From positions 54,094,859 to 54,158,858 of the forward strand of contig CM059575.1 in NCBI GenBank assembly GCA_030386875.1: DNA of 64,000 nucleotides, read 5' to 3'. The stretch comes from Morinoia aosen (Eukaryota; Arthropoda; Malacostraca; Amphipoda; Talitridae). The notes under the pieces are model-generated. The model was not told the origin of the DNA, did not search any database, and saw only the letters and a program-made list of their open reading frames with translations. This document shows, in pieces, positions 3,101 to 62,123 of this stretch; the stretch's first letter is position 1, and the number at the start of each line of letters is the position of its first letter. A program made the translations under genes and the position numbers.

Positions 3101-4240
3101 TAGCCATGAAAGGCGAAGTGATGGCTGCGTAGAGTTCCAGTGACAGGCCGTAATGTTTGATCGCGAGGAAAATTTCGTTCGGGTTGCAGCAGTGAACGGT
3201 CGTAAATATATTTTCTTCTTAACTACCATGGGACATTGGAAAGAGAAGTATGGTGCATAAGTGACTACAAACTTCTTATTTCCTTTGTGTTAGAGTTAAA
3301 TCATTCTGTGCGCACCCTGCGCGGCACCACTACTGTTGAACCTTTTCCCCTTTGTCTCCAAAGGTAATGAAATTGATTAGTGGCTCAACAGTCATACTTC
3401 TGAGAGTCACCTTGGTTTTTCCTCTGTTACATTTAGTACTTGAGATATTTACACCCATTTTCTATTTGTTATGAGAGTATAAGGGAAATGTTTATACTAT
3501 GAAGGTTGACGAGTCTAAACGACATGAAGGCGGAAAGATCTTCGTAGGAATTTTTATTTGTTTTCCACATGCCGTGCCTCTCGCATGGTCAGCGTTATGC
3601 TGAGCCAGCTGGTCAACTGTAAAGTTGCCACAATAATTATTTTTCGGTATAAATGGAATTAAACTTTTTCACAAACGATAAACTTGAATTTTTTAGCAAA
3701 AAATAGCATTCTAGTAATCCTGGTCAGCAGAGGCGTGCTGTGAGCAAGGGTGCATCACATGATCGCTTGTTCTGCGGCGTATGTGTGGACAAATGAGGTC
3801 GTGGCCGTGGCGTTCTGACGCCTCGCTGGGGTATCGTATCCAACACTCAGCGTGGGCTTCTTAGAGTTACCTGCGGCTTAATTAAGGACACGTTATTGCA
3901 CCCAAAAGTGCAATTTTGTATACGGAGTTGCAGCCAATTTTTATGGTTTTCTTGTTCTCTCCTGAATTTTAGTTACTGTGCTTCAAGTAAGTTTTTTATC
4001 TATGAAGATATGACATTTATCCACAATAAATGTCCATATTATAGGGCGGCCACGATTGTACCATTTCAATGGGGTGATTTTATGTACCCCCGGACAAAAT
4101 TTTTTTTGGTTGAGGCTAAGGTAGGCCTATATCTCTGGCAGGAATGCGTCAGGCATACAGGTATGAAATTTCCTCTGGAATTGAGCTAAACAAAGCTCAG
4201 AAGCTGACTCATGCTCTGAGCGAGCGATGATTATATTTGT
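186..4240. other. Intergenic, no gene recognised
   Basis: Short open frames (none above about 100 codons) show no recognisable domain, no convincing splice signals and no supporting codon bias. Base composition is AT-rich with small GC-richer patches near 2430-2560 and 3720-3860. No tandem array or long inverted repeat was noticed. It may hold decayed repeats that would need a repeat library to name. Confidence 0.6.
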
Positions 4241-4244
4241 TTTT

Positions 4245-4375
4245 TACAGTCACTCGTGTACACTTTTTCGGCTCACTTGTGTTTTTTTATATTGACATCT
4301 ACTACTTTCTTCTCCAACTTTTATCTTGTTTCATAAACTTCTTTCCTAACTCACTGTTTCTGTGCGCAAAGGTTC
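4245..4375 (+). mobile_element. Fragment of the 361-bp SINE-like family
   Basis: The stretch containing ctactactttcttctccaa, cttttatcttgtttcataaa and ctcactgtttctgtgcgc matches, in reverse orientation, the central part of the SINE-like element best seen at 61316-61676. Only the pyrimidine-rich middle survives; neither end nor a target duplication was found, so this is an old truncated copy. Confidence 0.5.
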
Positions 4376-4652
4376 TTGTGTGAAAACACATCTTTTTCCT
4401 CCCCTTTTGGAGCACCTTGGTGGTGTTAAGGAGTTAGGTTTTAACTAACTTATCAGATGAAATCTAATAATTTACAATGTGCATGGTTTCGGCACAGGAA
4501 TACGTACAATGATACACCAACATACAATTAGTAAAACGTACATGTTCAAAAGGCTGTTTAGCGGTGCATGCTTCTTTGGCTGAATCAAAGTTTAATTAAG
4601 AGAAGAAAGATGATACAGACAGAAATCTTTGAATGAAGTACACAACAGAAAA

Positions 4653-7600: not shown

Positions 7601-8115
7601 AGGGAAAAGTGGGGGGCAGGGAAAAGTGGGGGGCAGGGAAAAGTGGGGGGCAGGGAAAAGTGGGGGGCAGGGAAAAGTGGGGGGCAGGGAAAAGTGGGGG
7701 GCAGGGAAAAGTGGGGGGCAGGGAAAAGTGGGGGGCAGGGAAAAGTGGGGGGCAGGGAAAAGTGGGGGGCAGGGAAAAGTGGGGGGCAGGGAAAAGTGGG
7801 GGGCAGGGAAAAGTGGGGGGCAGGGAAAAGTGGGGGGCAGGGAAAAGTGGGGGGGCAGGGAAAAGTGGGGGGCAGGGAAAAGTGGGGGGCAGGGAAAAGT
7901 GGGGGGCAGGGAAAAGTGGGGGGCAGGGAAAAGTGGGGGGCAGGGAAAAGTGGGGGGCAGGAAAAGTGGGGGGCAGGGAAAAGTGGGGGGCAGGGAAAAG
8001 TGGGGGGCAGGGAAAAGTGGGGGGCAGGGAAAAGTGGGGGGCAGGGAAAAGTGGGGGGCAGGGAAAAGTGGGGGGCAGGGAAAAGTGGGGGGCAGGGAAA
8101 AGTGGGGGGCAGGGA
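4653..8115. repeat. 17-bp G-rich minisatellite, about 200 units
   Basis: The unit is aaaagtgtggggcaggg (17 bp) repeated almost without change up to about 6350. From there to the gap every unit carries T to G, giving aaaagtggggggcaggg. Sporadic one- or two-base length variants (for example near 5509, 6131, 6239, 7006, 7053) are the main differences. Because 17 is not a multiple of three and the unit has no stop codon, all three forward frames and one reverse frame stay open for over 4 kb (counting through the Ns); these are not genes. The G-rich strand has runs of four to six and of three Gs in every unit. The array enters an assembly gap, so its true length is unknown. Confidence 0.98.
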
Positions 8116-8615
8116 NNNNNNNNNNNNNNNNNNNNNNNNNNNNNNNNNNNNNNNNNNNNNNNNNNNNNNNNNNNNNNNNNNNNNNNNNNNNNNNNNNNNN
8201 NNNNNNNNNNNNNNNNNNNNNNNNNNNNNNNNNNNNNNNNNNNNNNNNNNNNNNNNNNNNNNNNNNNNNNNNNNNNNNNNNNNNNNNNNNNNNNNNNNNN
8301 NNNNNNNNNNNNNNNNNNNNNNNNNNNNNNNNNNNNNNNNNNNNNNNNNNNNNNNNNNNNNNNNNNNNNNNNNNNNNNNNNNNNNNNNNNNNNNNNNNNN
8401 NNNNNNNNNNNNNNNNNNNNNNNNNNNNNNNNNNNNNNNNNNNNNNNNNNNNNNNNNNNNNNNNNNNNNNNNNNNNNNNNNNNNNNNNNNNNNNNNNNNN
8501 NNNNNNNNNNNNNNNNNNNNNNNNNNNNNNNNNNNNNNNNNNNNNNNNNNNNNNNNNNNNNNNNNNNNNNNNNNNNNNNNNNNNNNNNNNNNNNNNNNNN
8601 NNNNNNNNNNNNNNN
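8116..8615. other. Assembly gap (500 N)
   Basis: Exactly 500 N directly follow the 17-bp minisatellite. A round-number gap next to a satellite usually marks an array the assembler could not cross, so the real distance is not known. The sequence after the gap is unique and does not contain the 17-bp unit. Confidence 0.99.
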
Positions 8616-8827
8616 CTAAGCCCATCAATGCCTTTGGCAGACTAAAAGCTGTGAATATAAGGAGGCTGCTTTCCATTATATTTTAATGAAAATGAACGAA
8701 TATAGTAACATTACACTCATGCAAATAAAAAAGAGATTACGTAGCTACGATGCAGCAACAATATTCACACAAGCTCGTCCAATCCATATTTCAAAGCAGC
8801 AAGCCACACTGACTGGTTTTGTGCTGC

Positions 8828-9915
8828 ATGGCTGCCACTTGTGTTTGACCAAAAAATCTAGTGTGACCTCAAAAAATATCGAGAAACATCTAGATTTAAA
8901 AATAAAACATCCAAAAATTTATCTAGAAATAAATTAATTATCTACTATAATAAATTAGTTGAACAATAGCATATAAGGATATTTATATCATAAATTGCTT
9001 TATATTAGGCAATTTATCTTTATATAAATGATCTAGTATCCTGATATTTACCCTAATAAAGCTTGGTATCCAAATATTCTTCAATTCCACACGTGTTGCG
9101 GGTAGAAAGGTCAGTCTCTTTTGCATTGCAATTATCAATGCTCGGATTCCTACTTATCAACAATTGTTTCAAGGCTTTCACACCGCTATCTTCATCATTT
9201 TTAATAATTTTGCAATTACTAAAAATGATGAAGATAGCGGTGTGAAAGCCTTAAAACAATTGTTGATAAGTAGGAATCCGAGCATTGATAATTGCAATGC
9301 AATAGAGACTGACCTTACACGCCGAGAGAAGCTATTCTACAACAGCTATAAGCATTCAGTTTTATTTTCATGCGTTACTCAACTCTATTTACGCAATGCC
9401 TTGTCCCACCTACAAGAAGGGAAAACTTACATCAATCGTAACTGAACTCATTGTTACGAATATCATTGGTCATTCTTTCGTCAAAATGAGGTCACAATAC
9501 ATTCTTGATAATGTATGTGCATTTTATTCCATGATTTTTTTATATCATCACTATTTTTGCAGTTGGAGATAGTGTGCTTTAGCTTATGAACCGTGAAATA
9601 GCCGTCTTGGTGTCATTCATAATCTGAACATAACATGATCAGAATATGGTTGCTTCACTATTCAGACAATTTGCTGAAGTAAATTAACAAATATAATAAG
9701 AATGAAGTAGTAACCAACCATTAGGGTGAATTCTTAATTCGAATTTACAGTAATCTATCATGTACATAGCTTAATTGTAATTCTAGCTAGAAAATTTTTA
9801 GCATACAGAAAAACTATATAGATTTTATAGCTAATATCTAGGTTCAAAATTTTACATCTAGGCTTCAGCAAAAACATCTAGATCTAGCTATATAATATCT
9901 AGAGTGGCAGCCCTG
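8828..9915. mobile_element. hAT-like non-autonomous element
   Basis: The left end reads CATGGCTGCCACT and the right end, read inward on the minus strand, CAGGGCTGCCACT; the inner ten bases GGCTGCCACT match perfectly. CAGGG-type ends are typical of hAT transposons. The flanking octamers ttgtgctg (left) and ttgagcag (right) agree at six of eight positions, consistent with an aged 8-bp target duplication. Both subterminal regions are rich in ctaga motifs. The interior holds the long palindrome at 9107-9316 and no transposase-like frame. The weak duplication makes the exact borders provisional. Confidence 0.45.
9107..9316. repeat. Long palindrome, arms about 96 bp, 18-nt loop
   Basis: The arm beginning aaggtcagtctc returns as its reverse complement ending gagactgacctt, with only a few mismatches along about 96 bp. 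The central 18 bases (aataattttgcaattact) separate the arms. A transcript of either strand would form a long hairpin. The palindrome lies wholly inside the hAT-like element, so it probably arose within that element. Confidence 0.9.
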
Positions 9916-12616: not shown

Positions 12617-12894
12617 AAATTCACGTATGATAAAACAAGAAAAAAGCGTCGCCAAGCGAGGAGACGAATTCCGACGAATAACACATTATTCTGCCTCTAT
12701 AAGCACACGATAATGGAATAAAAATACAAGACATGTTCGCCTACCACATGCCGCTCATGCCTAACGTGAACAACAAACAATGTTTGAGTTCTCGCCCTTC
12801 GAATAATGCTACAACGAGAAAAACTCATCTTTCTAAAGTAAACGATATAAGAACATATAATACGCTATTATTTGTACGATATAATGCTTAAATA

Positions 12895-13250
12895 GAGGAC
12901 AATGATGTTTCGAGAGGACAATGATGTTTCGAGAGGACAATGTTGTTTCGAGAGGACAATGTTGTTTCGAGAGGACAATGTTGTTTCGAGAGGACAATGT
13001 TGTTTCGAGAGGACAATGTTGTTTCGAGAGGACAATGTTGTTTCGAGAGGACAATGTTGTTTCGAGAGGACAATGTTGTTTCGAGAGGACAATGTTGTTG
13101 CGAGAGGACAATGTTGTTTCGAGAGGACAATGTTGTTTCGAGAGGACAATGTTGTTTCGAGAGGACAATATTGTTTCGAGAGGACAATGTTGTTTCGAGA
13201 GGACAATGTTGTTTCGAGAGGACAATGTTGTTTCAAGAGGACAATGTTAG
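12895..13250. repeat. 19-bp minisatellite, about 18 units
   Basis: The unit is gaggacaatgttgtttcga. The first two units read gatgtttcga in place of gttgtttcga, one unit near 13097 has gttgttgcga, and one near 13167 has gacaatattg. The array ends exactly where transposase coding similarity begins at about 13251. All frames through it are open, so several short open frames here are artefacts. Its core gacaatgttgtttc also occurs inside the 81-bp repeats at 16950 and 18653. Confidence 0.97.
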
Positions 13251-13936: not shown

Positions 13937-15705
13937 ACTACTCCTACTCGACACCCCACTCCTACTCGACACCCCACTCCTACTCGACACCCCACTCCTA
14001 CTCGACACCCCACTCCTACTCGACACCCCACTCCTACTCGACACCCCACTCCTACTCGACACCCCACTCCTACTCGACACCCCACTCCTACTCGACACCC
14101 CACTCCTACTCGACACCCCACTCCTACTCGACACCCCACTCCTACTCGACACCCCACTCCTACTCGACACCCCACTCCTACTCGACACCCCACTCCTACT
14201 CGACACCCCACTCCTACTCGACACCCCACTCCTACTCGACACCCCACTCCTACTCGACACCCCACTCCTACTCGACACCCCACTCCTACTCGACACCCCA
14301 CTCCTACTCGACACCCCACTCCTACTCGACACCCCACTCCTACTCGACACCCCACTCCTACTCGACACCCCACTCCTACTCGACACCCCACTCCTACTCG
14401 ACACCCCACTCCTACTCGACACCCCACTCCTACTCGACACCCCACTCCTACTCGACACCCCACTCCTACTCGACACCCCACTCCTACTCGACACCCCACT
14501 CCTACTCGACACCCCACTCCTACTCGACACCCCACTCCTACTCGACACCCCACTCCTACTCGACACCCCACTCCTACTCGACACCCCACTCCTACTCGAC
14601 ACCCCACTCCTACTCGACACCCCACTCCTACTCGACACCCCACTCCTACTCGACACCCCACTCCTACTCGACACCCCACTCCTACTCGACACCCCACTCC
14701 TACTCGACACCCCACTCCTACTCGACACCCCACTCCTACTCGACACCCCACTCCTACTCGACACCCCACTCCTACTCGACACCCCACTCCTACTCGACAC
14801 CCCACTCCTACTCGACACCCCACTCCTACTCGACACCCCACTCCTACTCGACACCCCACTCCTACTCGACACCCCACTCCTACTCGACACCCCACTCCTA
14901 CTCGACACCCCACTCCTACTCGACACCCCACTCCTACTCGACACCCCACTCCTACTCGACACCCCATTCCTACTCGACACCCCATTCCTACTCGACACCC
15001 CATTCCTACTCGACACCCCATTCCTACTCGACACCCCATTCCTACTCGACACCCCATTCCTACTCGACACCCCATTCCTACTCGACACCCCATTCCTACT
15101 CGACACCCCATTCCTACTCGACACCCCATTCCTACTCGACACCCCATTCCTACTCGACACCCCATTCCTACTCGACACCCCATTCCTACTCGACACCCCA
15201 TTCCTACTCGACACCCCATTCCTACTCGACACCCCATTCCTACTCGACACCCCATTCCTACTCGACACCCCATTCCTACTCGACACCCCATTCCTACTCG
15301 TCCCTATTCCTACTCGTCCCTATTCCTACTCGTCCCTATTCCTACTCGTCCCTATTCCTACTCGTCCCTATTCCTACTCGTCCCTATTCCTACTCGTCCC
15401 TATTCCTACTCGTCCCTATTCCTACTCGTCCCTATTCCTACTCGTCCCTATTCCTACTCGTCCCTATTCCTACTCGTCCCTATTCCTACTCGTCCCTATT
15501 CCTACTCGTCCCTATTCCTACTCGTCCCTATTCCTACTCGTCCCTGTTCCTACTCGTCCCTATTCCTACTCGTCCCTATTCCTACTCGTCCCTATTCCTA
15601 CTCGTCCCTATTCCTACTCGTTCCTACTCCTACTCGTTCCTACTCCTACTCGTTCCTACTCCTACTCGTACCTATTCCTACTCGTTCCTATTCCTACTCG
15701 CTCCC
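13934..15705. repeat. 18-bp then 16-bp minisatellite
   Basis: Three blocks lie in order. From 13934 to about 14960 the unit is cctactcgacaccccact (18 bp). From about 14960 to 15290 the same unit carries one C to T change (ccattc). From about 15291 the unit shortens to 16 bp (ttcctactcgtcccta), and the last few units drift to ttcctactcctactcg. About 75 units have the 18-bp length. With 18 divisible by three, the first blocks translate as PTRHPT or PIPTRH repeats, and on the other strand GVSSRS or VGCRVG repeats; there is no sign that either is a protein. The left border abuts the transposase relic. Confidence 0.97.
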
Positions 15706-25120: not shown

Positions 25121-25487
25121 GCTGATTAGGTTAGATTATTAGTTAGTTTAAGCCTCCCTATCCTCAACAAATGAGATCCAAAGAGAGAAAGGAAGATGGC
25201 ACCATTTAATATGAAGTTAAGGGAACGCGGAATCTATGCACCAAGGGCATAAAAACCGTGAGATGAGAAAGAAGTTCATGAAACAAGATCAAAGTTGAAG
25301 AAGAAAGTAGTAGGTGCTGAAAAAACAGGACAGCAGTGAACCAAAAAAAGATGGTCCGTAACAAAACAAAAATCTATGTTATTTTAACAAAAATAAAGCC
25401 TACCCAACCTTTAGCTCGGGCCCTCACATTGTCCCCCTGGGAGCGCTAATTCCCATAGACACAATAGTTGAATCCCCCTGAGGGGAA
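25121..25487 (-). mobile_element. SINE-like element, 361-bp family
   Basis: On the minus strand it begins ccccTCAGGGGGATTC, continues through ATTAGCGCTCCCAGGGGG and GAGGGCCCGAGCT, and ends GGGAGGCTTAAACTAAC followed by a TAATCTAACC tail. It is nearly full length against the reference copy at 61316-61676. Flanking agctgattag and agctaattag may be its target duplication. The family has no coding capacity. Confidence 0.75.
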
Positions 25488-35547: not shown

Positions 35548-37705
35548 TTACGTAATACCTATTTTCAATGGATAGGAAGACTGAATGTCATTAAGGTTAG
35601 GTTTCAATTGGCTAATAAAGAGGGATTCAAGAATGCGTAAATTAAAACAAGAACCTGCAGAACCTAATATTGAAAAATTTTCGAGTGAGATATTTGTATT
35701 ACATTGTTCAGCATGGATTCTAATAGCGGAATGGGAAGGCCTACTTAATGGAATACCAGTCCTAAAACTTCTACCACTGTGTTCAAATACCCTCGTAGAT
35801 AGCAACCGAGATGTCGAACCGACATACACAGACCCACACAGTGGGCAACAGTACTTGTATACAACAGAGGAAAGCATTGAAATGGGTAGTCTATCTTTGA
35901 AATGAAAAAATGAACCAATTTTGAAATTATTAACCAAAATAATTTGAAGGTCAACACAGGGAAAGTATTTCACAACTAATGAGAGCAATTGTTCTTTTAA
36001 CTTCCCAGACTGAACACGGAAGCAAGGAATGGTGACGAACAATTTCTTCTTATCTACAGTCAACACAGTAGCAATGGTGGAATACTTTTTATTTAAAAAT
36101 TGCTTGAGATACTTTTGAATAAAATATAAAGGATAACCATTTTTCACAAAAAACTGCTTTAAAAATTCAAACTCATTATGCAATAATGAATAACTTGAGC
36201 ATATTTCATAAGCCCGAAATAAAAGAGTTTTCATGCTATTAATTTTAAATAAAAAAGAAGAATACGAGAAATAACTTAAACCCAAACCAGTAAAAGTGCT
36301 TTTCCTATAAACAGAGGTACAAAAAGTGGAACCTGATCGTTGGACAAGACAGTCTAAAAAAGGTAATTTATTATTTGCTTCAGTCTCCATGGTAAAATTA
36401 ATATTTCGGTGTTTACTATTAATATAGTCAAGAAACAAAAGAGTGGTTTCTATCTCGGAACAAAACAAAAGTATCATCAACGTATCTGCAGTAAAATATT
36501 GGTTTAAAATTTTTTGGACATTCAGACAGCCATATTCGTTCATGATGTGACATAAAAATATTCGCGAAAGTTGGACCCAAAGGCAGCCCCATACCCAATT
36601 CCTCTATTTCTTTGTAGTACTTGCCATTAAAAATGAAAAATGAGAACCTAACTGCAAGATCTAACAGGGTTTTAAATGCTACACGACTAAGGTTGCAAAC
36701 GGTCTGTTCCACTTCAAATAATTGCTGCAAACAAGTATCAATTGTTTCAGTTAACGGAATATTGGTAAACAAATTTTCGACATCAAATGACGTCATGTAA
36801 AATTTGTCAGCATCAGGAATACTAGCGATCTCCTCAGCAAAGGAGGATGAATTAAAAACGCTGTATTCATTGGTAGTTATGGGGTTTAAAATGGGAACTA
36901 AAAATTTAGCTAATTTATAACTCGGAGTGTTGTAGGCTGCCAAAATCGTCCTTAGTTGAAATTTGGATTTAAAATCTGCTTTATGTACTTTGGGAAGACC
37001 ATAGAGTATTCCCGGACCTGAACCGGAAACATGTAAGCTACTATATATAGTTTCAGTTATAACGGAAGATTTACTAAGTTTTCGCAAGAAATTATTTATT
37101 TTATCTTCTATACGGAGTACATATTTATGGATAGGTTCACGTATTTCCGAGAACCTACTGCTGTCTGAAATAATAGTACCCAAAGCTCGCAAATAATTAG
37201 ACCTGTCAAGTAAAACTACACCTCGACCTTTGTCCGGTCGAGTCACAACTATAGTCTTGTTTGCAGCAAGAGACTTGAGAAGAGATATATCAGATTTTGT
37301 GAATATAGCAGAAAATATCTTATACGATTTGAAATTATAATAATACTTCATTGACAATGATTTGAGATTGCTAACGAACTCATTAAAGTTAATACATGGA
37401 AGATCATTCAAAATGGTGACCAATTTTTCGAATGATAAAAAGTACTTATAAAAATTCAAATTATAAACTGGGAGATTAAAATCAAGACCAAAAGCTAATA
37501 AAAATTTCAATCTAGAAGATAAATCGAGAGAACTATAATTAAAAATTACAGAGTCAAGGTCACAAGGCTTTAGTTCATTTTGTACTCCAAGGTCGTTGAG
37601 TTTACGAGTATGGACAGATTTGGTTAAATTGGAAAAATCCCTAAGTACAGAGTTAACATTTCGTTCAATAAGAGCAACTATAATGGGCGTAAAATGCTGC
37701 ACTAT
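35548..37705 (-). pseudogene. Penelope-like RT/GIY-YIG protein, one frameshift
   Basis: The reading frame codes from 5' to 3' for the same protein as the right copy: TRPDKGRGVVLLDR (RT motif 1), YGLPKVHK (RT 2), MTSFDVENLFTNIPL (RT 3 with the first catalytic Asp), MGLPLGPTFANIF (RT 4), CRYVDDTFVLF (RT 5, YVDD), LPFLDCLVQRSG (RT 6), then a GIY-YIG endonuclease with CCPLCGSVYVGSTSR, HSGRSFRTG and RILESLFI. A single frameshift just after YVDD separates the polymerase half from the endonuclease half, so this copy cannot make the whole protein. All catalytic residues are otherwise present. The apparent first residues come from the spacer. Confidence 0.9.
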
Positions 37706-37780
37706 CTTATACAAGAGATCCACTGCAAGCGGAAAAGTATAACTAACCTGACCTCCCAGTTGATTAATGGCAAGGCTCAG
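37706..37780. other. 75-bp unique spacer between the two Penelope-like copies
   Basis: The inverted arms end at gggcgtaaaatgctgcacta on the left and begin with its exact complement on the right. The 75 bp between them match neither arm. Both long open frames run into the spacer, which supplies their apparent N-termini; those residues are different in the two frames and are not part of the element. Confidence 0.9.
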
Positions 37781-39940
37781 ATAGTGCAGCATTTTACGCC
37801 CATTATAGTTGCTCTTATTGAACGAAATGTTAACACTGTACTTAGGGATTTTTCCAATTTAACCAAATCTGTCCATACTCGTAAACTCAACGACCTTGGA
37901 GTACAAAATGAACTAAAGCCTTGTGACCCTGACTCTGTAATTTTTAATTATAGTTCTCTCGATTTATCTTTTAGATTGAAATTTTTATTAGCTTTTGGTC
38001 TTGATTTTAATCTCCCAGTTTATAATTTGAATTTTTATAAGTACTTTTTATCATTTGAAAAATTGGTCACCATTTTGACTGATCTTCCATGTATCAACTT
38101 TAATGAGTTCGTTAGCAATCTCAAATCATTGTCAATGAAGTATTATTATAATTTCAAATCGTATAAGATATTTTCTGCTATATTCACAAAATCTGATATA
38201 TCTCTTCTCAAGTCTCTTGCTGCAAACAAGACTATAGTTGTGACTCGACCGGACAAAGGTCGAGGTGTAGTTTTACTTGACAGGTCTAATTATTTGCGAG
38301 CTTTGGGTACTATTATTTCAGACAGCAGTAGGTTCTCGGAAATATGTGAACCTATCCATAAATATGTACTCCGTATAGAAGATAAAATAAATAATTTCTT
38401 GCGAAAACTTAGTAAATCTTCCGTTATCTCTGAAACTATATATAATAGCTTACATGTTTCCGGTTCAGGTCCGGGAATACTCTATGGTCTTCCCAAAGTA
38501 CATAAAGCAAATTTTAAATCCAAATTTCAACTAAGACCGATTTTTGCTGCCTACAACACTCCGAGTAATACATTAGCTAAATTTTTAGTACCTATTTTAA
38601 ACCCCATAACTACCAATGAATACAGCGTTTTTAATTCATCCTCCTTTGCTGAGGAGATCGCTAGAATTCCTGATGCTGACAAATTTTACATGACGTCATT
38701 TGATGTCGAAAATTTGTTTACCAATATTCCGTTAACTGAAACAATTGATACTTGTTTGCAGCAATTATTTGAAGTGGAACAGACCGTTTGCAACCTTAGT
38801 CGTGTAGCATTTAAAACCCTGTTAGATCTTGCAGTTAGGTTCTCATTTTTCATTTTTAATGGCAAGTACTACAAAGAAATAGAGGGATTGGGTATGGGGC
38901 TGCCTTTGGGTCCAACTTTCGCGAATATTTTTATGTCACATCATGAACGAATATGGCTGTCTGAATGTCCAAAAAATTTTAAACCAATATTTTACTGCAG
39001 ATACGTTGATGATACTTTTGTTTTGTTCCGAGATAGAAACCACTCTCTTTTGTTTCTTGACTATATTAATAGTAAACACCGAAATATTAATTTTACCATG
39101 GAGACTGAAGCAAATAATAAATTACCTTTTTTAGACTGTCTTGTCCAACGATCAGGTTCCACTTTTTGTACCTCTGTTTATAGGAAAAGCACTTTTACTG
39201 GTTTGGGTTTAAGTTATTTCTCGTATTCTTCTTTTTTATTTAAAATTAATAGCATGAAAACTCTTTTATTTCGGGCTTATGAAATATGCTCAAGTTATTC
39301 ATTATTGCATAATGAGTTTGAATTTTTAAAGCAGTTTTTTGTGAAAAATGGTTATCCTTTATATTTTATTCAAAAGTATCTCAAGCAATTTTTAAATAAA
39401 AAGTATTCCACCATTGCTACTGTGTTGACTGTAGATAAGAAGAAATTGTTCGTCACCATTCCTTGCTTCCGTGTTCAGTCTGGGAAGTTAAAAGATCAAT
39501 TGCTCTCATTAGTTGTGAAATACTTTCCCTGTGTTGACCTTCAAATTATTTTGGTTAATAATTTCAAAATTGGTTCATTTTTTCATTTCAAAGATAGACT
39601 ACCCATTTCAATGCTTTCCTCTGTTGTATACAAGTACTGTTGCCCACTGTGTGGGTCTGTGTATGTCGGTTCGACATCTCGGTTGCTATCTACGAGGGTA
39701 TTTGAACACAGTGGTAGAAGTTTTAGGACTGGTATTCCATTAAGTAGGCCTTCCCATTCCGCTATTAGAATCCATGCTGAACAATGTAATACAAATATCT
39801 CACTCGAAAATTTTTCAATATTAGGTTCTGCAGGTTCTTGTTTTAATTTACGCATTCTTGAATCCCTCTTTATTAGCCAATTGAAACCTAACCTTAATGA
39901 CATTCAGTCTTCCTATCCATTGAAAATAGGTATTACGTAA
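37781..39940 (+). CDS. Penelope-like reverse transcriptase with GIY-YIG endonuclease
   Basis: The open frame from the arm border encodes about 719 residues ending SSYPLKIGIT (counting from an ATG in the spacer at 37694 it has 748). RT motifs occur in order: RPDKGRGVVLLDR (near residue 213), GLPKVHKA (near 290), TSFDVENLFTN (near 350), GMGLPLGPTFANIF (near 420), CRYVDDTFVLF (near 455) and LPFLDCLVQRSG (near 490). The C-terminal GIY-YIG nuclease has YKYCCPLCGSVYVGSTS with the CxxC pair between the GIY-like and YVG strands and a catalytic-type Glu in RILESLF; this CxxC is a known feature of endonuclease-bearing Penelope-like elements. The frame is intact and both catalytic centres are present, so it could encode active protein, but a normal 5' end is not visible. 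Confidence 0.92.
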   Translation: MVQHFTPIIVALIERNVNTVLRDFSNLTKSVHTRKLNDLGVQNELKPCDPDSVIFNYSSLDLSFRLKFLLAFGLDFNLPVYNLNFYKYFLSFEKLVTILTDLPCINFNEFVSNLKSLSMKYYYNFKSYKIFSAIFTKSDISLLKSLAANKTIVVTRPDKGRGVVLLDRSNYLRALGTIISDSSRFSEICEPIHKYVLRIEDKINNFLRKLSKSSVISETIYNSLHVSGSGPGILYGLPKVHKANFKSKFQLRPIFAAYNTPSNTLAKFLVPILNPITTNEYSVFNSSSFAEEIARIPDADKFYMTSFDVENLFTNIPLTETIDTCLQQLFEVEQTVCNLSRVAFKTLLDLAVRFSFFIFNGKYYKEIEGLGMGLPLGPTFANIFMSHHERIWLSECPKNFKPIFYCRYVDDTFVLFRDRNHSLLFLDYINSKHRNINFTMETEANNKLPFLDCLVQRSGSTFCTSVYRKSTFTGLGLSYFSYSSFLFKINSMKTLLFRAYEICSSYSLLHNEFEFLKQFFVKNGYPLYFIQKYLKQFLNKKYSTIATVLTVDKKKLFVTIPCFRVQSGKLKDQLLSLVVKYFPCVDLQIILVNNFKIGSFFHFKDRLPISMLSSVVYKYCCPLCGSVYVGSTSRLLSTRVFEHSGRSFRTGIPLSRPSHSAIRIHAEQCNTNISLENFSILGSAGSCFNLRILESLFISQLKPNLNDIQSSYPLKIGIT

Positions 39941-49275: not shown

Positions 49276-49525
49276 GCTAAGTCAATACAGCGCAACCGTT
49301 AGTGATGATTGAATTAAATTAGATTAGTCGTTAGTTTTAGCCTCCCTATCCGCAGCAACAAATGCGATACAAAGAGAGGAAGGAAGAAGGTACCAATTAG
49401 TATGTAGTAAAAGGAACGTGGAATCTATGACCGGCAGGCCTCAGCCGAAACGGTTCAAGAAACGGTTTGTGAAGAGTACAGGAATTTCTGAAGAATTTCT
49501 TGAGTCCACCTCGCGCGACTTTACA

Positions 49526-50131
49526 CTTCAGTTTCCCACTCGTAACTTTAGAAAGAATGTACCTATTAACTTCAAATTGCTCTCAAACGAAAGAGCGAAA
49601 CATTCTCTATCTAGCTAGTATAAGCAACACCCTCAAGGTATTCTGAAAGTTACAAAAATTCTTCGATAAACCTTGCAAACATGCGCGCACTAAAAACACT
49701 TCAGTTTCCCACTCGTAACTTTAGAAAGAATGTACCTATTAACTTCAAATTGCTCTTAAACGAAAGAGCAAAACATTCTCTATCTAGCTAGTATAAGCAA
49801 CACCCTCAAGGTATTCAGAAAGTTACAAAAATTCTTCGATAAACCTTGCAAACATGCGCGCACTAAAAACACTTCAGTTTCCCACTCGTAACTTTAGAAA
49901 GAATGTACCTATTAACTTCAAATTACTTTCAAACGAAAGAGCGAAACATTCTCTATCTAGCTAGTATAAGCAACACCCTCAAGGTATTCTGAAAGTTACA
50001 AAAATTCTTCAATAAACCTTGCAAACATGCGCGCACTAAAAACACTTCAGTTTCCCACTCGTAACTTTAGAAAGAATGTACCTATTAACTTCAAATTGCT
50101 CTCAAACGAAAGAGCGAAACATTCTCTATTA
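49526..50131 (+). repeat. Left arm, 173-bp tandem array, about 3.5 units
   Basis: The marker cttcagtttcccactcg recurs at 49526, 49699, 49872 and 50045, exactly 173 bp apart. Units differ by only a few bases. The array follows the 96-bp terminal block and ends inside a unit at about 50131, where unique core sequence starts. Confidence 0.95.
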
Positions 50132-51032
50132 GCATATTATTAATAAAACCTAAACAGTTTTCTGAAAACAACAGTATATTTCACCTGCTGGTGAAATGTT
50201 CGTATGTGAGTTATATGAAATACAGTGTAATTTCATAATATGATAACCTCAAGAAGAATACATTAAATGGGGCCTGTACCAAAAACTTTCCGCGGAAATC
50301 GCAGCGGAGGCAGATGCATCAACGCTCAAAGTACCTGTTTCACATTTGAAAGACTAAAAAAAAGACATGCCCCAAATCTAAAAAACTGACATAATTTTAT
50401 GATAAATAGTTGAAAGTAAATATCACTAATTATAATGTGAGAATTGGTACAAAACAAACCGAAGTGTAGAAATAAGCATTTCAATGGTTGAACATATAAA
50501 TGAAAAAATAAGAAAACCAAGGTAACACAAAAACATATTTTGAGATAATACCCATGAGCATAAGACAAATAGTCAGGTAATGGGTTTAGGAAATGCTAAA
50601 TGAGTTTCGTTGTAGTCTTGACAATTTTAAGAAACAATGGATGCGTGACAGATTTCAGCTTTCGCATTTGAAACTGTAAACGTTTCATTAGAAATAAACG
50701 ATTATTTTTTAATTCATATTCAGAGTGAGAGTCTTAATCCTACTCATAATCAATGACCCAGCTAGACGACGTGGTTGTTTTGCTGACACGGCAAGCGCCT
50801 GCTGAGTAGCCCTCACACTGTTTAGGAATCACAGACCTGCGTTGGTATATAGTCTTGCTCCGTGCATGCCTACAACGTTAGTTCTATTTTAAGGGTTTTC
50901 GTGTAAGGTTGGTCCTTTTCATTGGCCACAGGAGACCTTAATTGGAAATTCAGCTGATCAACGATCAAAACTTGTGGCTCTTAAGCGTATAGAAAACTGA
51001 ACGTGTATTATTTTGTGCATTGTTTTGTGAAA

Positions 51033-51215
51033 ATGGAGAGGGAACTCGAGCTCTTGAAATCGTTGCCGAGCAAAAGCTATAAAAGCAAACGTGAACTTTT
51101 TAAACGATTATCTCGCAGTTTAGGAAGTCAGCGATACGAACGAAACCGAGCTAGATTCCGAAAATTAGAAGGGACGAGTGCAGCGTTCAACTACCAAGTA
51201 TCCAGAATAGTTCAA
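51033..51215 (+). CDS. Short basic ORF, first exon inside the foldback element
   Basis: An ATG in good context (gtgaaaATGG) opens 61 codons: MERELELLKSLPSKSYKSKR, ELFKRLSRSLGSQRYERNRA and RFRKLEGTSAAFNYQVSRIVQ. The frame ends in phase 0 at CAA|GTAAGT, a near-perfect splice donor. The product is strongly basic (Lys/Arg rich) with heptad-like helices, as in a DNA-binding or oligomerisation region, but I recognise no family. Sequence before it has a ccaat-type motif near 50920. It may be spliced to the protease-like exon at 52.2 kb; no acceptor there is fully convincing. Confidence 0.5.
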
Positions 51216-51221
51216 GTAAGT

Positions 51222-52150
51222 TGATAAGCTTAAATTACTTTTACTCAAATCTAGTTGCTGTCAAAAGTAGTTACAAAGATAGGCCTTCCCGACTATAGCA
51301 TAAGATACAATTCCCGGCCTTCCCGACTATGCGTAAAAGATACAATTACTCTCTGTTGTAAAGCTAAATAAAAAACCAGTCCAATATCGCACCTCGAGAT
51401 TATTACATGTTTGAAAACTGAGATTAAACTATAATCTCAATAGTGCGAGGATCACTCCTGCAAAATCTAAGTCCGATCCCAAGCCCGGCCTTAACCAAAA
51501 AATTGAAATAAAACGAAAGAAGAAAAAAAGAACAACAGTTTATTTCCAATAAAGTGCAAAGAAGAAATGTTGATACATTGGTTTTTAAAATATCTTAACA
51601 TTAACATCCTTAACTGATAATTATTCATTGGTATCGTAATAATGAAGTAAAATGTCAAAACAAAAAGTGACTGACAGAAAAGCACAACAAAAATGAGTTC
51701 CTTTCGTTGCTTAATCTGATTTCGAGAGTGCATTTAAGTAAGAGTAACTTAGAAAACACAATCCTCGTAACGCTTAGTTGAAAACATTCTCGTTAGTGCG
51801 CACATGTATCGAAATAAATGCGAAAAACGCATTCAAATACCTTTACCTTGAGATCCTCAATTGCTATTCACACATGGTTATCGTAGTACCCATGATAATT
51901 GTCGAAACATGATTCGGAGAAAAGCATGAAAAAAAGCGTTTCTCTTTCCTGCGGTCGTCGGATTTTGGTAATGCATTTAATACAAGCTTCTAAGAAAACA
52001 TAGTTCATGTGACGCATTGCTGAAAAACCCTCTCGGTAGTGCGTACTCGAATTGAAATATGATCATAAGAACATAGGAAATAGTGATACGAGCGTGAGGG
52101 ATTGATGTTAGGGGTAAAATGAGCAGATTTGATTCATTTTGCGTGTAGAA
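51222..52150. other. Possible intron of the foldback element's gene
   Basis: This AT-rich stretch lies between the donor at 51216 and the protease-like frame. It contains an imperfect duplication of ggccttcccgactat (about 51282 and 51316). No other coding frame was recognised. Confidence 0.4.
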
Positions 52151-52156
52151 CTATGA

Positions 52157-52708
52157 GGTCGACAGTCGGGATTTGGGACAATGTTTGTGCAAGTCATTAA
52201 CACAAGGTATAATGACTGTAAGTTAATACTGGACAACGATGGTTACGCAAGTGCGCATGACAGCGGGAGCCATTGGGTCGTTGTCACAAACGCAATGTGT
52301 CACAGAGCTGCTGAAGAAGGTGTGGCGTACGTGCAACACATCTGTTCGCTGAACGGTGACCCCAGTCCAGATGTTATCAAGTATATGAAGAAGGTGTACG
52401 AAGGCACTAATGCCATTAAAAAACTTGTGTTACAGTGCCTGAATGTACAACACCAAATGGACGGTTCAAGTTGTGGTCTATTCGCTCTAGCATTCTCTAC
52501 GTCTGTAGTGAAAGGAAAAGACCCATGTTTTCTCGACTACGACGTACGCAAGATGAGGAAACATCTTATTTCGTGCTTCGAAGAAAATTCGTTGATGGAA
52601 TTTCCACTCATGGCAACGTCTGAAAGCGTCAGCTTCGGAAACGGAAAACTTCTCGGGCTCCATGGACCACGAATCCGCAAGGAAATAATCATCACATGCG
52701 ACAGCTAA
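52157..52708 (+). CDS. Ulp1/C48-type cysteine protease-like protein
   Basis: From the first ATG (52181) there are 175 residues; the frame is open from 52157. The fold landmarks are FVQVINT, GSHWVVVTN with the catalytic His (residue 31), SLNGDPSPDVI, and QMDGSSCGLFALAF with the oxyanion Gln (92) and nucleophile Cys (98), followed by MRKHLISCFEENSLMEFP. This is the arrangement of SUMO-protease-like C48 peptidases, often carried by DNA transposons. The Asp expected in a YDSL-type motif before NG is replaced: the sequence reads HICSLNG. The N-terminal part of the domain is missing, and may lie in an upstream exon. Loss of the Asp would weaken or abolish proteolysis, so decay or a non-catalytic role are both possible. 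Confidence 0.75.
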   Translation, partial: GRQSGFGTMFVQVINTRYNDCKLILDNDGYASAHDSGSHWVVVTNAMCHRAAEEGVAYVQHICSLNGDPSPDVIKYMKKVYEGTNAIKKLVLQCLNVQHQMDGSSCGLFALAFSTSVVKGKDPCFLDYDVRKMRKHLISCFEENSLMEFPLMATSESVSFGNGKLLGLHGPRIRKEIIITCDS

Positions 52709-52714
52709 ATGTTT

Positions 52715-53815
52715 TACTATAAAATACATGCATTTTCATTTTGAACACGTTCCCCGCGATTCCAAGGCTGTAAACGGTTGGTTTTGTCTGGTTGTATCAG
52801 AATAGGGAAATCGATTTCCAAGTTGGATATATTTTAATAGTTCCTGATGAATACGGAAAATACAACTGCATGGTAAGATTTCAATTAGTATGGTAACAAT
52901 TATCTGTAAAAAAGTTGCAAAACGGATACAATGTCGTGCATTCATATCGGTACGTAAATTGGCAATTTACCTTTTGGTTTACATGTGGCCCGATACGCGG
53001 GGAACGTGTTAGAGATCCAATTACCGTTTTTTGATTGACTAGATCTAGGAAGCTTTACATCCAATGATATTTAAACTGTGCGATAAAGTCATGAATGTGG
53101 ATCATGTACGTTATGTCATGTTATGCTATGAATATTGATAAGTTATAAATGTTAATTATATTATCATGTATATTTAATGAAATTCCACGATTTCATTGGT
53201 TGGTTAATTTAATATTTTAACTTGAGCTCAAATAAAGGCCTGTAAGTGTTGCCCAACAAGTGGACAAGGCCCAAATTTTAGTCCCACTGCTCGGATTAAC
53301 TGAAAACAGCAGCTGGTCTGAGTGGTGGGGCTGGAATCGAAAGCCACAACTCAACGAACCCACAGAAGAGAAAGACCAACTGAACTTCATGGCAGCCCTC
53401 GACGTCTTTCAGATATTCTCTTATTGGGATTAGTTACTTCGTTGAAAAGTAAAGCAGAAGAAGCAAATGGGAGCTGCGCTTTTTCCCACGGTAAGTGTGC
53501 GCAAAACATTTATGTAGTAGCGAGTCTGTTGGAGAAGTGTATGAGCTGTAATTCTAATGTAAATTAAAGCCTCAAGGAAACACATGTTATCTGAGAATTA
53601 GGAGCTAACGCTAGCGTTTCCCCCTTTTGTAGGTGAGTGCTCAAGAATTTTGGCCTCCACGATTTCCCCTCAAGAATGTTTTAATTTTTAGTTTTAGATT
53701 ACTTTTAATTCGATAGGTGCATTATTTCGAAAGTTACGTGAATGTGAACGTAGAATCGCGACAATATGGGGCTCATCGAAAAAATAAACCGATAGGGTTT
53801 TGTTTATGATAAGAA
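52715..53815. other. Foldback core, 3' part, no certain gene
   Basis: AT-rich sequence with an aataaa signal at 53232-53237 that could end the protease transcript. An 81-codon frame at 53322-53567 (+) has no recognised domain. Confidence 0.4.
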
Positions 53816-55113
53816 GATAGAAAATGTTTCGCTCTTTCGTTTGAGAGCAATTTGAAGTTAATAGGTACATTCTTTCTAAAGTTACGAGTGGGAAACTGAA
53901 GTGTTTTTAGTGCGCGCATGTTTGCAAGGTTTATCGAAGAATTTTTATAACTTTCAGAATACCTTGAGGGTGTTGCTTATACTAGCTAGATAGAGAATGT
54001 TTCGCTCTTTCGTTTGAGAGCAATTTGAAGTTAATAGGTACATTCTTTCCAAAGTTACGAGTGGGAAACTGAAATGTTTTTAGTGCGCGCATGTTTGCAA
54101 GGTTTATCGAAGAATTTTTATAACTTTCAGAAAACCTTGAGGGTGTTGTTTATACTATATAGTTAGAGAATGTTTCGCTCTTTCGTTTGAGAGCAATTTG
54201 AAGTTAATAGGTACATTCTTTCCAAAGTTACGAGTGGGAAACTGAAGTGTTTTTAGTGCGCGCATGTTTGCAAGGTTTATCGAAGAATTTTTGTAACTTT
54301 CAGAATACCTTGAGGGTGTTGTTTATACTATATAGTTAGAGAATGTTTCGCTCTTTCGTTTGAGAGCAATTTGAAGTTAATAGGTACATTCTTTCCAAAG
54401 TTACGAGTGGGAAACTGAAGTGTTTTTAGTGCGCGCATGTTTGCAAGGTTTATCGAAGAATTTTTGTAACTTTCAGAATACCTTGAGGGTGTTGTTTATA
54501 CTATATAGATAGAGAATGTGTCGCTCTTTCGTTTGAGAGCAATTTGAAGTTAATAGGTACATTCTTTCCAAAGTTACGAGTGGGAAACTGAAGTGTTTTT
54601 AGTGCGCGCATGTTTGCAAGGCTTATCGAAGAATTTTCGTAACTTTCAGAATACCTTGAGGGTGTCGTTTATGCTATATAGATATAGAATGTTTCGCTCT
54701 TTCGTTTGAGAGCAATTTGAAGTTAATAGGTACATTCTTTCCAAAGTTACGAGTGGGAAACTGAAATGTTTTTAGTGCGCGCATGTTTGCAAGGTTTATC
54801 GAAGAATTTTCGTAACTTTCAGAATACCTTGAGGGTGTCGTTTATGCTATATAGATATAGAATGTTTCGCTCTTTCGTTTGAGAGCAATTTGAAGTTAAT
54901 AGGTACATTCTTTCCAAAGTTACGAGTGGGAAACTGAAGTGTTTTTAGTGCGCGCATGTTTGCAAGGCTTATCGAAGAATTTTTGTAACTTTCAGAATAC
55001 CTTGAGGGTGTTGTTTATACTATATAGATAGAGAATGTTTTGCTCTTTCGTTTGAGAGCAATTTGAAGTTAATAGGTACATTCTTTCCAAAGTTACGAGT
55101 GGGAAACTGAAGT
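53816..55113 (-). repeat. Right arm, 173-bp tandem array, about 7.5 units
   Basis: The marker gggaaactgaa(g/a)tg recurs at 53890, 54063, 54236 and onward every 173 bp. It is the reverse complement of the left-arm unit. Units are very alike, with a few shared variants (for example tccaaagtt in place of tctaaagtt) that mark right-arm units as a separate expansion. Confidence 0.95.
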
Positions 55114-55511
55114 GTAAAATCACGCGAGGTGGACTCAAGAAATTCTCCAGAAATTCCTGTACTTCTCGCAAAGTGTTTCTTGAAATGTCTCCGCTGCGGC
55201 CTGCCGGTGAATCTATGCAGAAAGGGCATAGAAACAGTAAGATGAGAAAAAAGTTCATGAAACAAGATCAAAGTTGAAGAAGAAAGTAGTAGGTGCTGAA
55301 AAAAACAAGATAGCAGTGAACCGAAAAAGATGGTCCGTAACAAAGCAAAAACCTATTCTATTTTAACAAAAAAGAAGCCTACCTAACTTTCAGCTCGGGC
55401 CCTCACATTTTTCCCCTGGGAGCGCTAATTCCCATAGATACAATAGTTGTATCCCCCTGAGGGGTGATTGAATTTGTCTCACTCACAATCGTACTTTCTC
55501 AATAGTATAAA

Positions 55512-59720: not shown

Positions 59721-59726
59721 TATTAA

Positions 59727-60085
59727 ATTCAGATTAGATGTTAGTTTAAGCTTCCCTAACCGCCAACAAAGACGTTCCAAAAAGAGGAAGGAAGAATGCA
59801 CCATTTATTATGGACTTAGCGAACACAAAATCAATGTACACGGTGCGTAAAAACAGTAAAATGAGAGCAAAGTTTTTGAAAAAAGATAAAACTCGAAGAA
59901 AAAGTGCAAGGTTCTGAAAAACAAGATAACACAATGAACTGAAAAAACACGGTCCGTAACAAAATAAAAAATACTCTATTTCAACACAGGAAGGCCTACC
60001 TACCCTTAAACTCAGGACCTCATATATAATCCCTCAGAGTATTAATCCCCATAGATACAATAGTTTTACCCCCTCTGAGGGAACA
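59727..60085 (-). mobile_element. SINE-like element, 361-bp family, near full length
   Basis: In plus orientation it opens gattagatgttagtttaagc and ends accccctctgaggga. All internal blocks are present. The flanks aacagaagaaa and aacagaaaaaa may be a target duplication. Confidence 0.75.
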
Positions 60086-61201: not shown

Positions 61202-62123
61202 GGTAAATCTGAAGGAGATGACAGTTGTCGATTTTGTAAATTTCGATGCCTTAGCACAGTTAATTAGATCGAAATAAACAAGTTTTCTTCTATGCACTTT
61301 TTGTCTCAAATGAGATTAGATTAGATTATAAGTTAGTTTAAGCCTCCCTAACCGCTGCAAAAAAAGAGCGTATCGAAGAGAGGAAGGAGGAAGGCACCAT
61401 TTAGTATGGAGATAAGGAAATTGGGAATCTATGCAGAACTGGCATAGAAACAGTAAGATGGGAAAGAAGTTCATGAAATAAGATAAAAGTTGAAGAAGAA
61501 AGTCAGAGGTGCTGAAAAACAGGACAGTAGTGAACCGAAAAAAGGTGGTCCTTAACATAACAAAAAACATTTTATTTCAACAAAAAGAAGGCCTACCTAA
61601 CTCAGCTCGGGCCCTCACATTTTTCCCCTGGGAGCGCTAATTCCCATAGATACAATAGTTGTATCCCCCTGAGGGATGTCTCAAATGAGTATTTTATTAG
61701 TTATAGCGGTAAATGACTTACCGCAACTCCAGTCTTTGAAGCGGAAAGAAATTCTTTGATCGAGTTGTATGGCAATACTGCAATGGCGTCTCGCTTCCAG
61801 CGCTCTGTCTTGAAAGACGAAACCAAACCTACCGCTATACCTCGTTAAATACTCATTTGACGAAAAAAGTGTATGGAATAAAAGTTGTTTATTTCGATGT
61901 TATTACCATGTTTCAAGCAACAAAAATTCGAAAATCGATGAGTAGCTGTTTATTCGAGCGCATTCGTCATCAATGACGAAACTAAACTTACCGCTATAAA
62001 TCGTAAAATACTCATTTGAGACGAAAAAAGAATAGAAGAAAACTTGTTTATTTTGATTCAATTAATTAGGTTCAGGCACCAAAAAGTGGAAAATCGACAA
62101 CTGTCATCTCCTTCAGATTTACC
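61202..62123. mobile_element. TIR element with 8-bp duplication, split by a SINE
   Basis: The ends are GGTAAATCTGAAGGAGATGA and its reverse complement, continuing as inverted repeats through cagttgtcgatttt and on to the block ataaacaagttttcttctat. The flanking octamer AAATAAGG is duplicated exactly (61194-61201 and 62124-62131). Without the SINE and its duplication the element is about 548 bp. The inside repeats a tgagtatttta...atagcggtaa block in both orientations, including a perfect gcggtaa/ttaccgc stem near 61710. No coding capacity. An 8-bp duplication fits hAT, P or Mutator-like elements; the ends do not let me choose. Confidence 0.85.
61316..61676 (-). mobile_element. SINE-like element, reference copy, 361 bp
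   Basis: A perfect 13-bp duplication, TGTCTCAAATGAG, flanks it (61303-61315 and 61677-61689). On the minus strand it starts TCCCTCAGGGGGATACAAC, passes TTAGCGCTCCCAGGGG and GAGGGCCCGAGCTGAG, and ends GGCTTAAACTAACTTATAAT then CTAATCTAAT. Variable duplications of 10-13 bp and a short-repeat tail indicate retroposition. The 5' boxes are only weakly like an RNA polymerase III promoter. It has no coding capacity. Confidence 0.9.

What the first reader, a model, noticed from the sequence alone, without database searches (positions are those of the whole stretch)
49306..55474. Foldback transposon nested in a SINE, both with readable target duplications
A 5779-bp element with 11-bp complementary tips, tandem-repeat arms and a 9-bp duplication (GAATCTATG) splits a 361-bp SINE-like copy that has its own 10-bp duplication (TGATTGAATT). 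The two SINE pieces add up to exactly the length of an unbroken copy. The sequence shows this directly. Combining foldback arms with a C48 protease-like gene and no visible transposase is the least expected feature of this window and may be an undescribed lineage.
Basis: partly seen in the sequence, partly recalled or inferred. Interest (0 to 1): 0.85.

Follow-up and report, generated by a model that had tools for sequence, protein, structure and literature searches.

The report
Deletion-shortened foldback transposon inside a SINE
A jumping DNA element with long repeat-built mirror-image ends sits inside an older short repeat; it is a shortened copy of a larger element, present elsewhere in the same genome, whose single long coding exon joins a transposase-like region to a protease-like region.

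Summary
A 5,779-bp foldback element (49430-55208; 9-bp duplication; arms of 173-bp tandem units) splits a 361-bp SINE-like copy that has its own 10-bp duplication. The reading 'no visible transposase, perhaps an undescribed lineage' is mostly wrong: the window copy lost about 6.9 kb relative to a longer copy on contig C9. Other copies carry one long open exon (1,140-1,490 aa in the three read) with acidic repeats, a DDE-like core (D, D, CxxH, E) and a C-terminal Ulp1/C48-like region. A second family (core 55% identical) has 182-bp arm units 70% like the 173-bp unit, ACCGGC tips and 9-bp duplications. A 23-base terminal pattern occurs 558 times (control 0). Likely mechanism: cut-and-paste by a Mutator-like transposase, the window copy movable only in trans. 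The parts have printed precedents: Rehavkus-1_TC, Tm1, Ulp1-bearing Mutator elements. The core scores below Pfam's MULE cut-off (best E 0.11), the C48 match is also below cut-off, and both AlphaFold models failed, so superfamily and protease activity rest on motifs. New variant of a known kind.

The parts
49306..49315 (.). Left target duplication TGATTGAATT of the SINE-like copy
49316..49429 (.). Left piece (114 bp) of the SINE-like copy, ending in one copy of GAATCTATG
   Evidence: unbroken copies at 25131-25485, 61320-61675, 59725-60081
49421..49429 (.). Left 9-bp target duplication GAATCTATG of the foldback element
49430..50167 (+). Left arm (738 nt, 92% complementary to 54471-55208): 93-bp terminal domain with tip ACCGGCAGGCC, then the tandem array
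49523..50133 (+). Left array, 3.5 units of 173 bp
51033..51215 (+). Predicted coding exon 1 (61 aa, MERELELL...RIVQ), followed by splice donor GTAAGT; in the 20 fetched neighbourhoods open in 20 of 21 full-length matches (1 partial match dropped), donor GT in 21 of 21
   Evidence: splicing itself is inferred
52181..52182 (.). Internal-deletion junction with a 2-bp overlap (AT); about 6.9 kb present in copy E9 (2751 to 9698) are missing here
52157..52708 (+). 183-aa ORF; from about 52181 on it is the C-terminal remnant of the transposase-C48 exon (HW, Q and CG motifs kept, N-terminal part lost)
53794..55115 (-). Right array, 7.6 units of 173 bp, inverted relative to the left array
54471..55208 (-). 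Right arm pairing with the left arm; terminal domain and tip GGCCTGCCGGT at its outer end
55209..55217 (.). Right 9-bp target duplication GAATCTATG
55218..55464 (.). Right piece (247 bp) of the SINE-like copy
55465..55474 (.). Right target duplication TGATTGAATT of the SINE-like copy

Best explanation
The window element is a non-autonomous internal-deletion copy of a probably recently active cut-and-paste DNA transposon lineage with foldback arms. Shown: relatives in the same genome share tips, arms and 9-10-bp duplications; relatives with long open frames carry one large exon with acidic tandem repeats, a conserved core with D, D, CxxH and E motifs, and a C48-like C terminus; the window copy joins noncoding sequence at about 52181 to the last part of that exon. 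Inferred: the core is a Mutator-like (MULE-type) DDE transposase that cuts at the ACCGGC ends and makes 9-bp staggered cuts; the arm units, conserved between two families, are repeated transposase-binding sites that help to bring the ends together; the window copy moved in trans or was shortened after it moved; the C48-like domain deconjugates SUMO or a similar modifier from the transposase or from host proteins.
For: Borders and duplications: 7 of 8 A-type tip pairs, six of 9 bp and one of 10 bp, and 2 of 2 B-type pairs of 9 bp. Ends: 558 matches of a 23-base terminal pattern (up to 2 mismatches) against 0 in the control; of the first 100 listed, 66 form 33 convergent + then - pairs 1.9-24.4 kb apart, and no neighbours under 30 kb are in the wrong order. 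Transposase-C48 exon: one search scored 56 of 1,424 candidates and listed 62 rows; 15 rows at 83-100% and 15 rows at 56% identity span nearly all of the 809-aa query without a stop; three were read through (L033, L034, L036). Selection: dN/dS over the core 0.33, 0.17 and 0.14 in three pairs, the latter two rough because dS exceeds 2. The deletion is seen directly against E9. Family-B arm units are 182 bp and 70% like the 173-bp unit, with blocks conserved. A distinct gene in the same genome joins MULE (E 1.8e-11), C48 (1.5e-8) and a C-terminal PHD finger (2.9e-8) in one ORF. Recent activity is inferred from interior identities of about 97-98% for many copies and from the open frames.
Against: The core is below Pfam's MULE cut-off: best E 0.11, in 1 of 4 members; the only other Pfam hit of the full-length proteins was PSII_Pbs27 at E 0.012 in 2 of 4, below cut-off and taken as chance. 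The C48 match is below cut-off too (E 0.37 in the window ORF, where YopJ-type acetyltransferase scores E 0.24 over an overlapping stretch; none in the full-length proteins; none in two isolated C-terminal regions). Search of solved structures gives SENP1 at E 0.17 (window ORF) and 0.1 (profile). Profile alignment with the bona fide MULE-C48 protein of this genome is not significant (probability 0.2%, E 0.34), although its best path falls on the protease motifs; there the triad Asp is replaced by Cys in this family. AlphaFold models failed: mean pLDDT 43 (core) and 34 (C48 region), and Foldseek on the first found nothing with E <= 0.001. In the closest pair the C48 region has dN/dS 0.69, weak constraint. 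No expression, excision or binding data exist here.
Confidence: 0.8

Rival explanations
1. It is a member of the Rehavkus group (MULE-related; 9-bp TSD, tandem repeats in inverted termini, PHD finger). This is a narrower version of the best explanation, not its opposite.
For: [quoted passage not shown] Rehavkus has a 9-bp TSD (PMC6446971 table 1).
Against: Rehavkus is described with a PHD finger and TIRs of 26-400 bp; no PHD match in any of 4 members scanned, and the arms here are 738 nt or more. No Rehavkus sequence was available for comparison. I lowered this from 0.35 to 0.25 on re-check, because the printed TIR range is a second feature not met.
Confidence: 0.25
2. A Phantom/Tm1-type MULE foldback element with an added protease domain (also a narrower version of the best explanation).
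For: Tm1 has composite foldback TIRs and mostly 9-bp TSDs with a Phantom-like transposase (PMC3169594 passages); Phantom TIRs range from 18 to 613 bp (PMC6446971 table 1).
Against: Tm1-A matches FLYWCH and MULE Pfam models clearly; this family shows no FLYWCH match, and MULE only at E 0.11 in 1 of 4 members.
Confidence: 0.15
3. A KDZ (Kyakuja-Dileera-Zisupton) element, a group I recall as carrying Ulp1-like domains.
For: Transposase-like core and C48-like region in one protein.
Against: No KDZ Pfam match in 4 members; 9-10-bp duplications rather than the 8 bp that I recall for Zisupton.
Confidence: 0.04
4. The C48-like segment is a captured host gene fragment riding in a foldback element (Pack-MULE-like passenger).
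For: In the window it stands alone as a 183-aa ORF.
Against: In the three copies read through it is continuous with the transposase-like core in one exon, in two families, and it is conserved between them (dN 0.37-0.39 with dS too high to compute).
Confidence: 0.04
5. One reading: an undescribed foldback lineage that uses a protease and no transposase.
For: The window copy lacks a transposase.
Against: Longer copies with the same ends carry a transposase-like core.
Confidence: 0.01

Closest known systems
Rehavkus-1_TC (Tribolium castaneum, Repbase 2006)
   Same: 9.5-kb element with 164-bp tandem units in its inverted termini in short arrays (PMC10218199 passages); 9-bp TSD for the group (PMC6446971 table 1)
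   Different: Group described with a PHD finger and TIRs of 26-400 bp, neither met here; sequence relation untested; nothing on a C48 domain in the passages and sections seen
Tm1 / Phantom (Mutator/foldback, root-knot nematodes)
   Same: Composite foldback TIRs, 8-10-bp (mostly 9) TSDs, many non-autonomous derivatives (PMC3169594 passages)
   Different: Small 496-aa transposase with FLYWCH and clear MULE domain; no protease mentioned in the passages seen
Ulp1-bearing Mutator elements (hydra, lancelet, Arabidopsis, maize, rice, melon)
   Same: Ulp1/C48 domain encoded by a Mutator-type transposon, in a figure legend aligned with Ginger1 transposases for both Ulp1 and PHD (PMC2836005 passages); plant KIU genes (PMC13317346 passages)
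   Different: Plant KIU elements are described as non-TIR MULEs with KIU as one of three genes; foldback arms are not mentioned in the passages seen
Ginger1
   Same: DDE transposase with a C-terminal Ulp1 or OTU protease domain (PMC2836005 passages)
   Different: Gypsy-integrase-like transposase; kinship with the core here was not tested beyond the Pfam scan, which gave no integrase match
Tetris (Drosophila virilis) and Galileo
   Same: Foldback arms with about 220-bp tandem units and 8-10-bp TSDs (Tetris, PMC4079207 passages); arm repeats shown to hold transposase-binding sites (Galileo, PMC3688188 abstract and passages)
   Different: No transposase-bearing Tetris copy was found; Galileo belongs to the P superfamily
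FARE (Arabidopsis)
   Same: Foldback element with a MULE transposase (as stated in PMC3169594); its 9-bp TSD and imperfect palindromic ends are recalled
   Different: Plant; the paper itself is not held

Membership tests
Mutator/MULE superfamily | 8-11-bp (mostly 9-bp) target duplication | tested here: met
   7 of 8 A-type pairs (six 9 bp, one 10 bp) and 2 of 2 B-type pairs (9 bp)
Mutator/MULE superfamily | DDE core recognised by the MULE profile PF10551 | tested here: inconclusive
   E 0.11, 13.4 bits against a cut-off of 27.6, in 1 of 4 members
Mutator/MULE superfamily | Order D, D, C..H, E in the core | tested here: met
   D820, D892, C934/H937 and E1093 invariant in 4 of 4 members, two of which are 99% identical; that this order marks MULEs is recalled
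Mutator/MULE superfamily | RNase H fold | tested here: inconclusive
   AlphaFold core model mostly below pLDDT 50
Rehavkus | 9-bp TSD | tested here: met
Rehavkus | Tandem (minisatellite) repeats in or next to the terminal repeats | tested here: met
   173-bp and 182-bp arrays in the arms
Rehavkus | PHD finger in the transposase | tested here: not met
   No match in 4 members (HMMER's filters drop most matches above E 0.1); present in the distinct L037/L041 protein
Rehavkus | TIR of 26-400 bp (printed range) | tested here: not met
   738-nt arms (range)
Rehavkus | Sequence kinship of the DDE core | not testable with these tools
   No Rehavkus sequence held
Rehavkus | Host an arthropod or annelid (printed range) | not tested
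   Host species not identified
Phantom / Tm1 | FLYWCH zinc finger and MULE domain | tested here: not met
   No FLYWCH match and MULE only at E 0.11 in 1 of 4; some Phantom members lack FLYWCH (table), so this bears on Tm1 more than on Phantom
KDZ | KDZ transposase profile | tested here: not met
   No match in 4 members
Peptidase C48 (Ulp1/SENP) | Profile match above cut-off | tested here: not met
   E 0.37, 11 bits against 20.7 in the window ORF; none in the full-length proteins or in two isolated C-terminal regions
Peptidase C48 (Ulp1/SENP) | His-Asp-Cys triad and Gln | tested here: inconclusive
   H92-W93, Q153 and C159-G160 invariant in 4 of 4; the Asp position aligns with Cys
SINE (host repeat) | Variable-length target duplications, several copies | tested here: met
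   10 bp in the window copy; 13 and 14 bp read by eye from the flanks printed (copies at 61320 and in L027); no clear one for the copies at 25131 and 59725
SINE (host repeat) | Pol III (tRNA/5S/7SL) head | tested here: inconclusive
   No tRNA or Rfam match in the window; A and B boxes were not scanned

The most novel reading that the evidence does not exclude
A deep, still active transposon lineage, sister to rather than inside the known MULE groups, in which foldback arms of about 175-bp units and a transposase-protease fusion have evolved together; the protease has exchanged the triad Asp for Cys and may act on something other than SUMO or serve only as a binding module; the arm units form a multi-site synapsis array that is conserved between families whose cores are 55% identical.
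Probability: 0.2. Interest if true: 0.6.

Novelty: new variant of a known kind. Interest (0 to 1): 0.42.

Why it matters
Foldback elements are often known only from defective copies (general knowledge; for Tetris, PMC4079207 reports that no transposase-bearing copy was found). Here one genome holds many copies with long open transposase-like frames, two families with related arm units, and hundreds of ends, so it offers direct material for asking what the arm repeats do and why transposases repeatedly join Ulp1-like domains. It also shows how an internal deletion can make an element look as if it carried a protease and no transposase.

Tried and rejected
Reading the element as transposase-free: rejected after finding longer copies.

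Passenger-gene reading of the C48-like ORF: judged unlikely, because it is one exon with the core in two families.

KDZ and FLYWCH profiles: no match. The whole-protein profile against solved structures matched only acidic stretches (E 0.011 and 0.12), taken as low complexity.

Relatives in viral contigs (alignment query) and in prokaryote contigs (one protein): none confirmed.

Homology of the 93-bp terminal domain with the 173-bp unit (a shared stretch is reported for Tetris): not found; direct score reached by 694 of 1000 shuffles, inverted by 55 of 1000.

Two early notes of mine are wrong or loose: one search gave a 10-nt microhomology at the deletion junction, and one search shows 2 bp; one search calls the L011 pair 'different elements', which was not shown.

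I first took ACCGGCAGGC as the family-B tip; flanks of 5 B copies are themselves inverted repeats, and the true tip lies about 80 bp further out.

AlphaFold: 2 of 2 jobs run, both too poor to use; Foldseek on the first gave nothing useful; no fold search was made with the second.

Host species: not identified; no eukaryote sequence collection was available.
Full report
Observation. The foldback element runs 49430-55208 (5,779 bp). Its ends are inverted arms of 738 nt, 92% complementary, which contain 173-bp tandem arrays of 3.5 and 7.6 units. GAATCTATG abuts both ends. TGATTGAATT bounds a host repeat whose two pieces sum to 361 bp; three near-full-length unbroken copies in the window span 355-357 bp. 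The host repeat has duplications of 10, 13 and 14 bp where I could read them (and by eye; two further copies show no clear one), which fits a retroposed SINE better than a DNA transposon; no tRNA or Rfam match supports a known SINE head, so 'SINE-like' is the right strength.

Other copies. The window lies on contig C20 of an unnamed 1.99-Gb genome, a eukaryote by its size and content (inference). A 201-base query from the element's interior matched 40 scored places out of 283 candidates, the window among them. I fetched 20 of those neighbourhoods, and a further stretch for 4 of them. Eight exact tip pairs could be examined; 7 have a direct duplication, six of 9 bp and one of 10 bp; the pair in L011 has none and was not resolved. 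A 23-base terminal pattern with up to 2 mismatches occurs 266 times forward and 292 times reverse, 0 in the control. Not all copies are independent insertions: L013, L014 and L015 share the same 20-bp flank, so they look like duplicated segments.

What was lost. Copy E9 (contig C9, 11,693 bp, duplication ATCAAGTAT) has, beyond the part shared with the window, two overlapping open frames of 368 and 809 aa. Against E9 the window copy lacks about 6.9 kb (2751 to 9698 of E9), joined at a 2-bp overlap. Three other copies examined in whole (E6, E3, E15) lack the transposase end instead.

The gene. Searching the genome with the 809-aa frame scored 56 of 1,424 candidates and gave 62 rows; 15 at 83-100% identity and 15 at 56% span nearly the whole query without a stop, and the rest are partial or broken. 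Three were read through: 1,490 aa (L033), 1,260 aa (L036) and, from the second family, 1,140 aa (L034). They have an N-terminal acidic region of near-identical tandem repeats (a 72-bp DNA period in L032), a conserved core with HLDSTGG, VVD, CxAH and TNGLVEGWH, a basic linker, and a C-terminal region with HW, Q and SSCG. dN/dS over the core is 0.33, 0.17 and 0.14 in three pairs, the latter two rough because dS exceeds 2; over the C48-like region it is 0.69 in the closest pair, and in the other two dS is too high to compute with dN 0.37-0.39. A predicted first exon at 51033-51215 with donor GTAAGT is open in 20 of 21 full-length matches in the fetched neighbourhoods, with GT in 21 of 21; one partial match was dropped. 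An in-frame acceptor-like sequence (TTTCAG) lies near the start of the large frame in L033 (seen by eye in the output). Splicing is inferred.

Second family. Downstream of the L034 gene there is an array of 182-bp units 70% identical to the 173-bp unit, with blocks such as TTTGAGAG.AATTTGAAG and AAAGTTACGAGT kept, and the outer terminal domain is also alike. Its tips are ACCGGCGTGC...GCACGCCGGT, with 9-bp duplications TCACGGAAG and GTGCTATAT in the 2 copies tested; the A-type tip sits about 80 bp inside. The C26 copy spans about 19.9 kb (coordinates). That arm units and terminal domain survive between families whose cores are 55% identical is the main reason to think the arms are functional. 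By analogy with Galileo, where arm repeats hold transposase-binding sites (PMC3688188 abstract and passages), I infer binding sites.

How sure is the family. Profile evidence is weak: PF10551 at E 0.11 in 1 of 4 members; PF02902 at E 0.37 in the window ORF, not at all in the full-length proteins or in two isolated C-terminal regions; SENP1 at E 0.1 by profile search. The order D, D, C..H, E, the 9-bp duplication and the long arms all point to the Mutator side, but the fold was not shown: AlphaFold gave mean pLDDT 43 and 34, and only about the first 130 residues of the core model reached block means of 58-86. Foldseek gave no match with E <= 0.001. A distinct gene in the same genome (contig C21, 1,039 aa) joins MULE 1.8e-11, C48 1.5e-8 and PHD 2.9e-8. 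This shows that a transposase-C48 fusion exists here in a second, recognisable form, but profile alignment with it is not significant. In that alignment the protease Asp aligns with a Cys in this family, so activity is open.

Comparison with print. [quoted passage not shown] Tm1 is a Mutator/foldback family with mostly 9-bp TSDs (PMC3169594 passages). Ulp1 domains in Mutator elements of hydra, lancelet and plants are in print (PMC2836005 passages). Two MULE surveys do not use the words protease, peptidase or foldback, nor ULP or Ulp1 (PMC6446971; PMC13359780). The searches 'foldback + Mutator-like + Ulp1' and 'foldback + Ulp1 + transpos' found 0 papers in the held library, which lacks most subscription journals and, as far as I know, Repbase reports, so this says little about whether the combination has been described.

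Verdict. A sound observation and a mostly mistaken surprise: the copy is a deletion derivative. The lineage behind it is a divergent, probably Mutator-related foldback transposon with a transposase-C48 fusion. That makes it a new variant of a known kind, useful because open genes and hundreds of ends sit in one genome.

Noticed in passing
35548-37858 (-) and 37628-39940 (+): Two inverted, overlapping, very similar stretches of long ORFs (351+476 aa and 770 aa) that look by eye like a Penelope-like reverse transcriptase with a GIY-YIG-type end; not tested with profiles.
   Followed up: no
4648-8115, 12894-13248, 13940-15705: Long short-period arrays (17 bp x 204, 19 bp x 19, 18 bp x 76 running into a 16-bp array); part of the stretch beside the first array reads N.
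   Followed up: no
L037/L041 (G000:C21:40583398-40586514): A distinct 1,039-aa gene joining MULE, weak SWIM (E 0.027, below cut-off), C48 and PHD domains, Rehavkus-like in its PHD finger; the other rows of its genome search are mostly partial or hold stops.
   Followed up: partly
L043:1225-1304, L044: Second-family elements carry two nested ACCGGC tips about 80 bp apart, the inner one like the window element's tip.
   Followed up: partly
G000:C7:3959337-4152523: Five same-strand terminal-pattern matches 42-64 kb apart, suggesting a tandem segmental duplication that carries one element end.
   Followed up: no
L013, L014, L015 (G000:C12, 88.95-89.42 Mb): Three copies share the same 20-bp flank, so they are probably duplicated segments, not independent insertions.
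   Followed up: no
L033, L034, L036, L032: The large exon carries an in-frame coding minisatellite (acidic repeats) of variable copy number, which probably accounts for much of the spread in open-frame length among full-span rows.
   Followed up: partly
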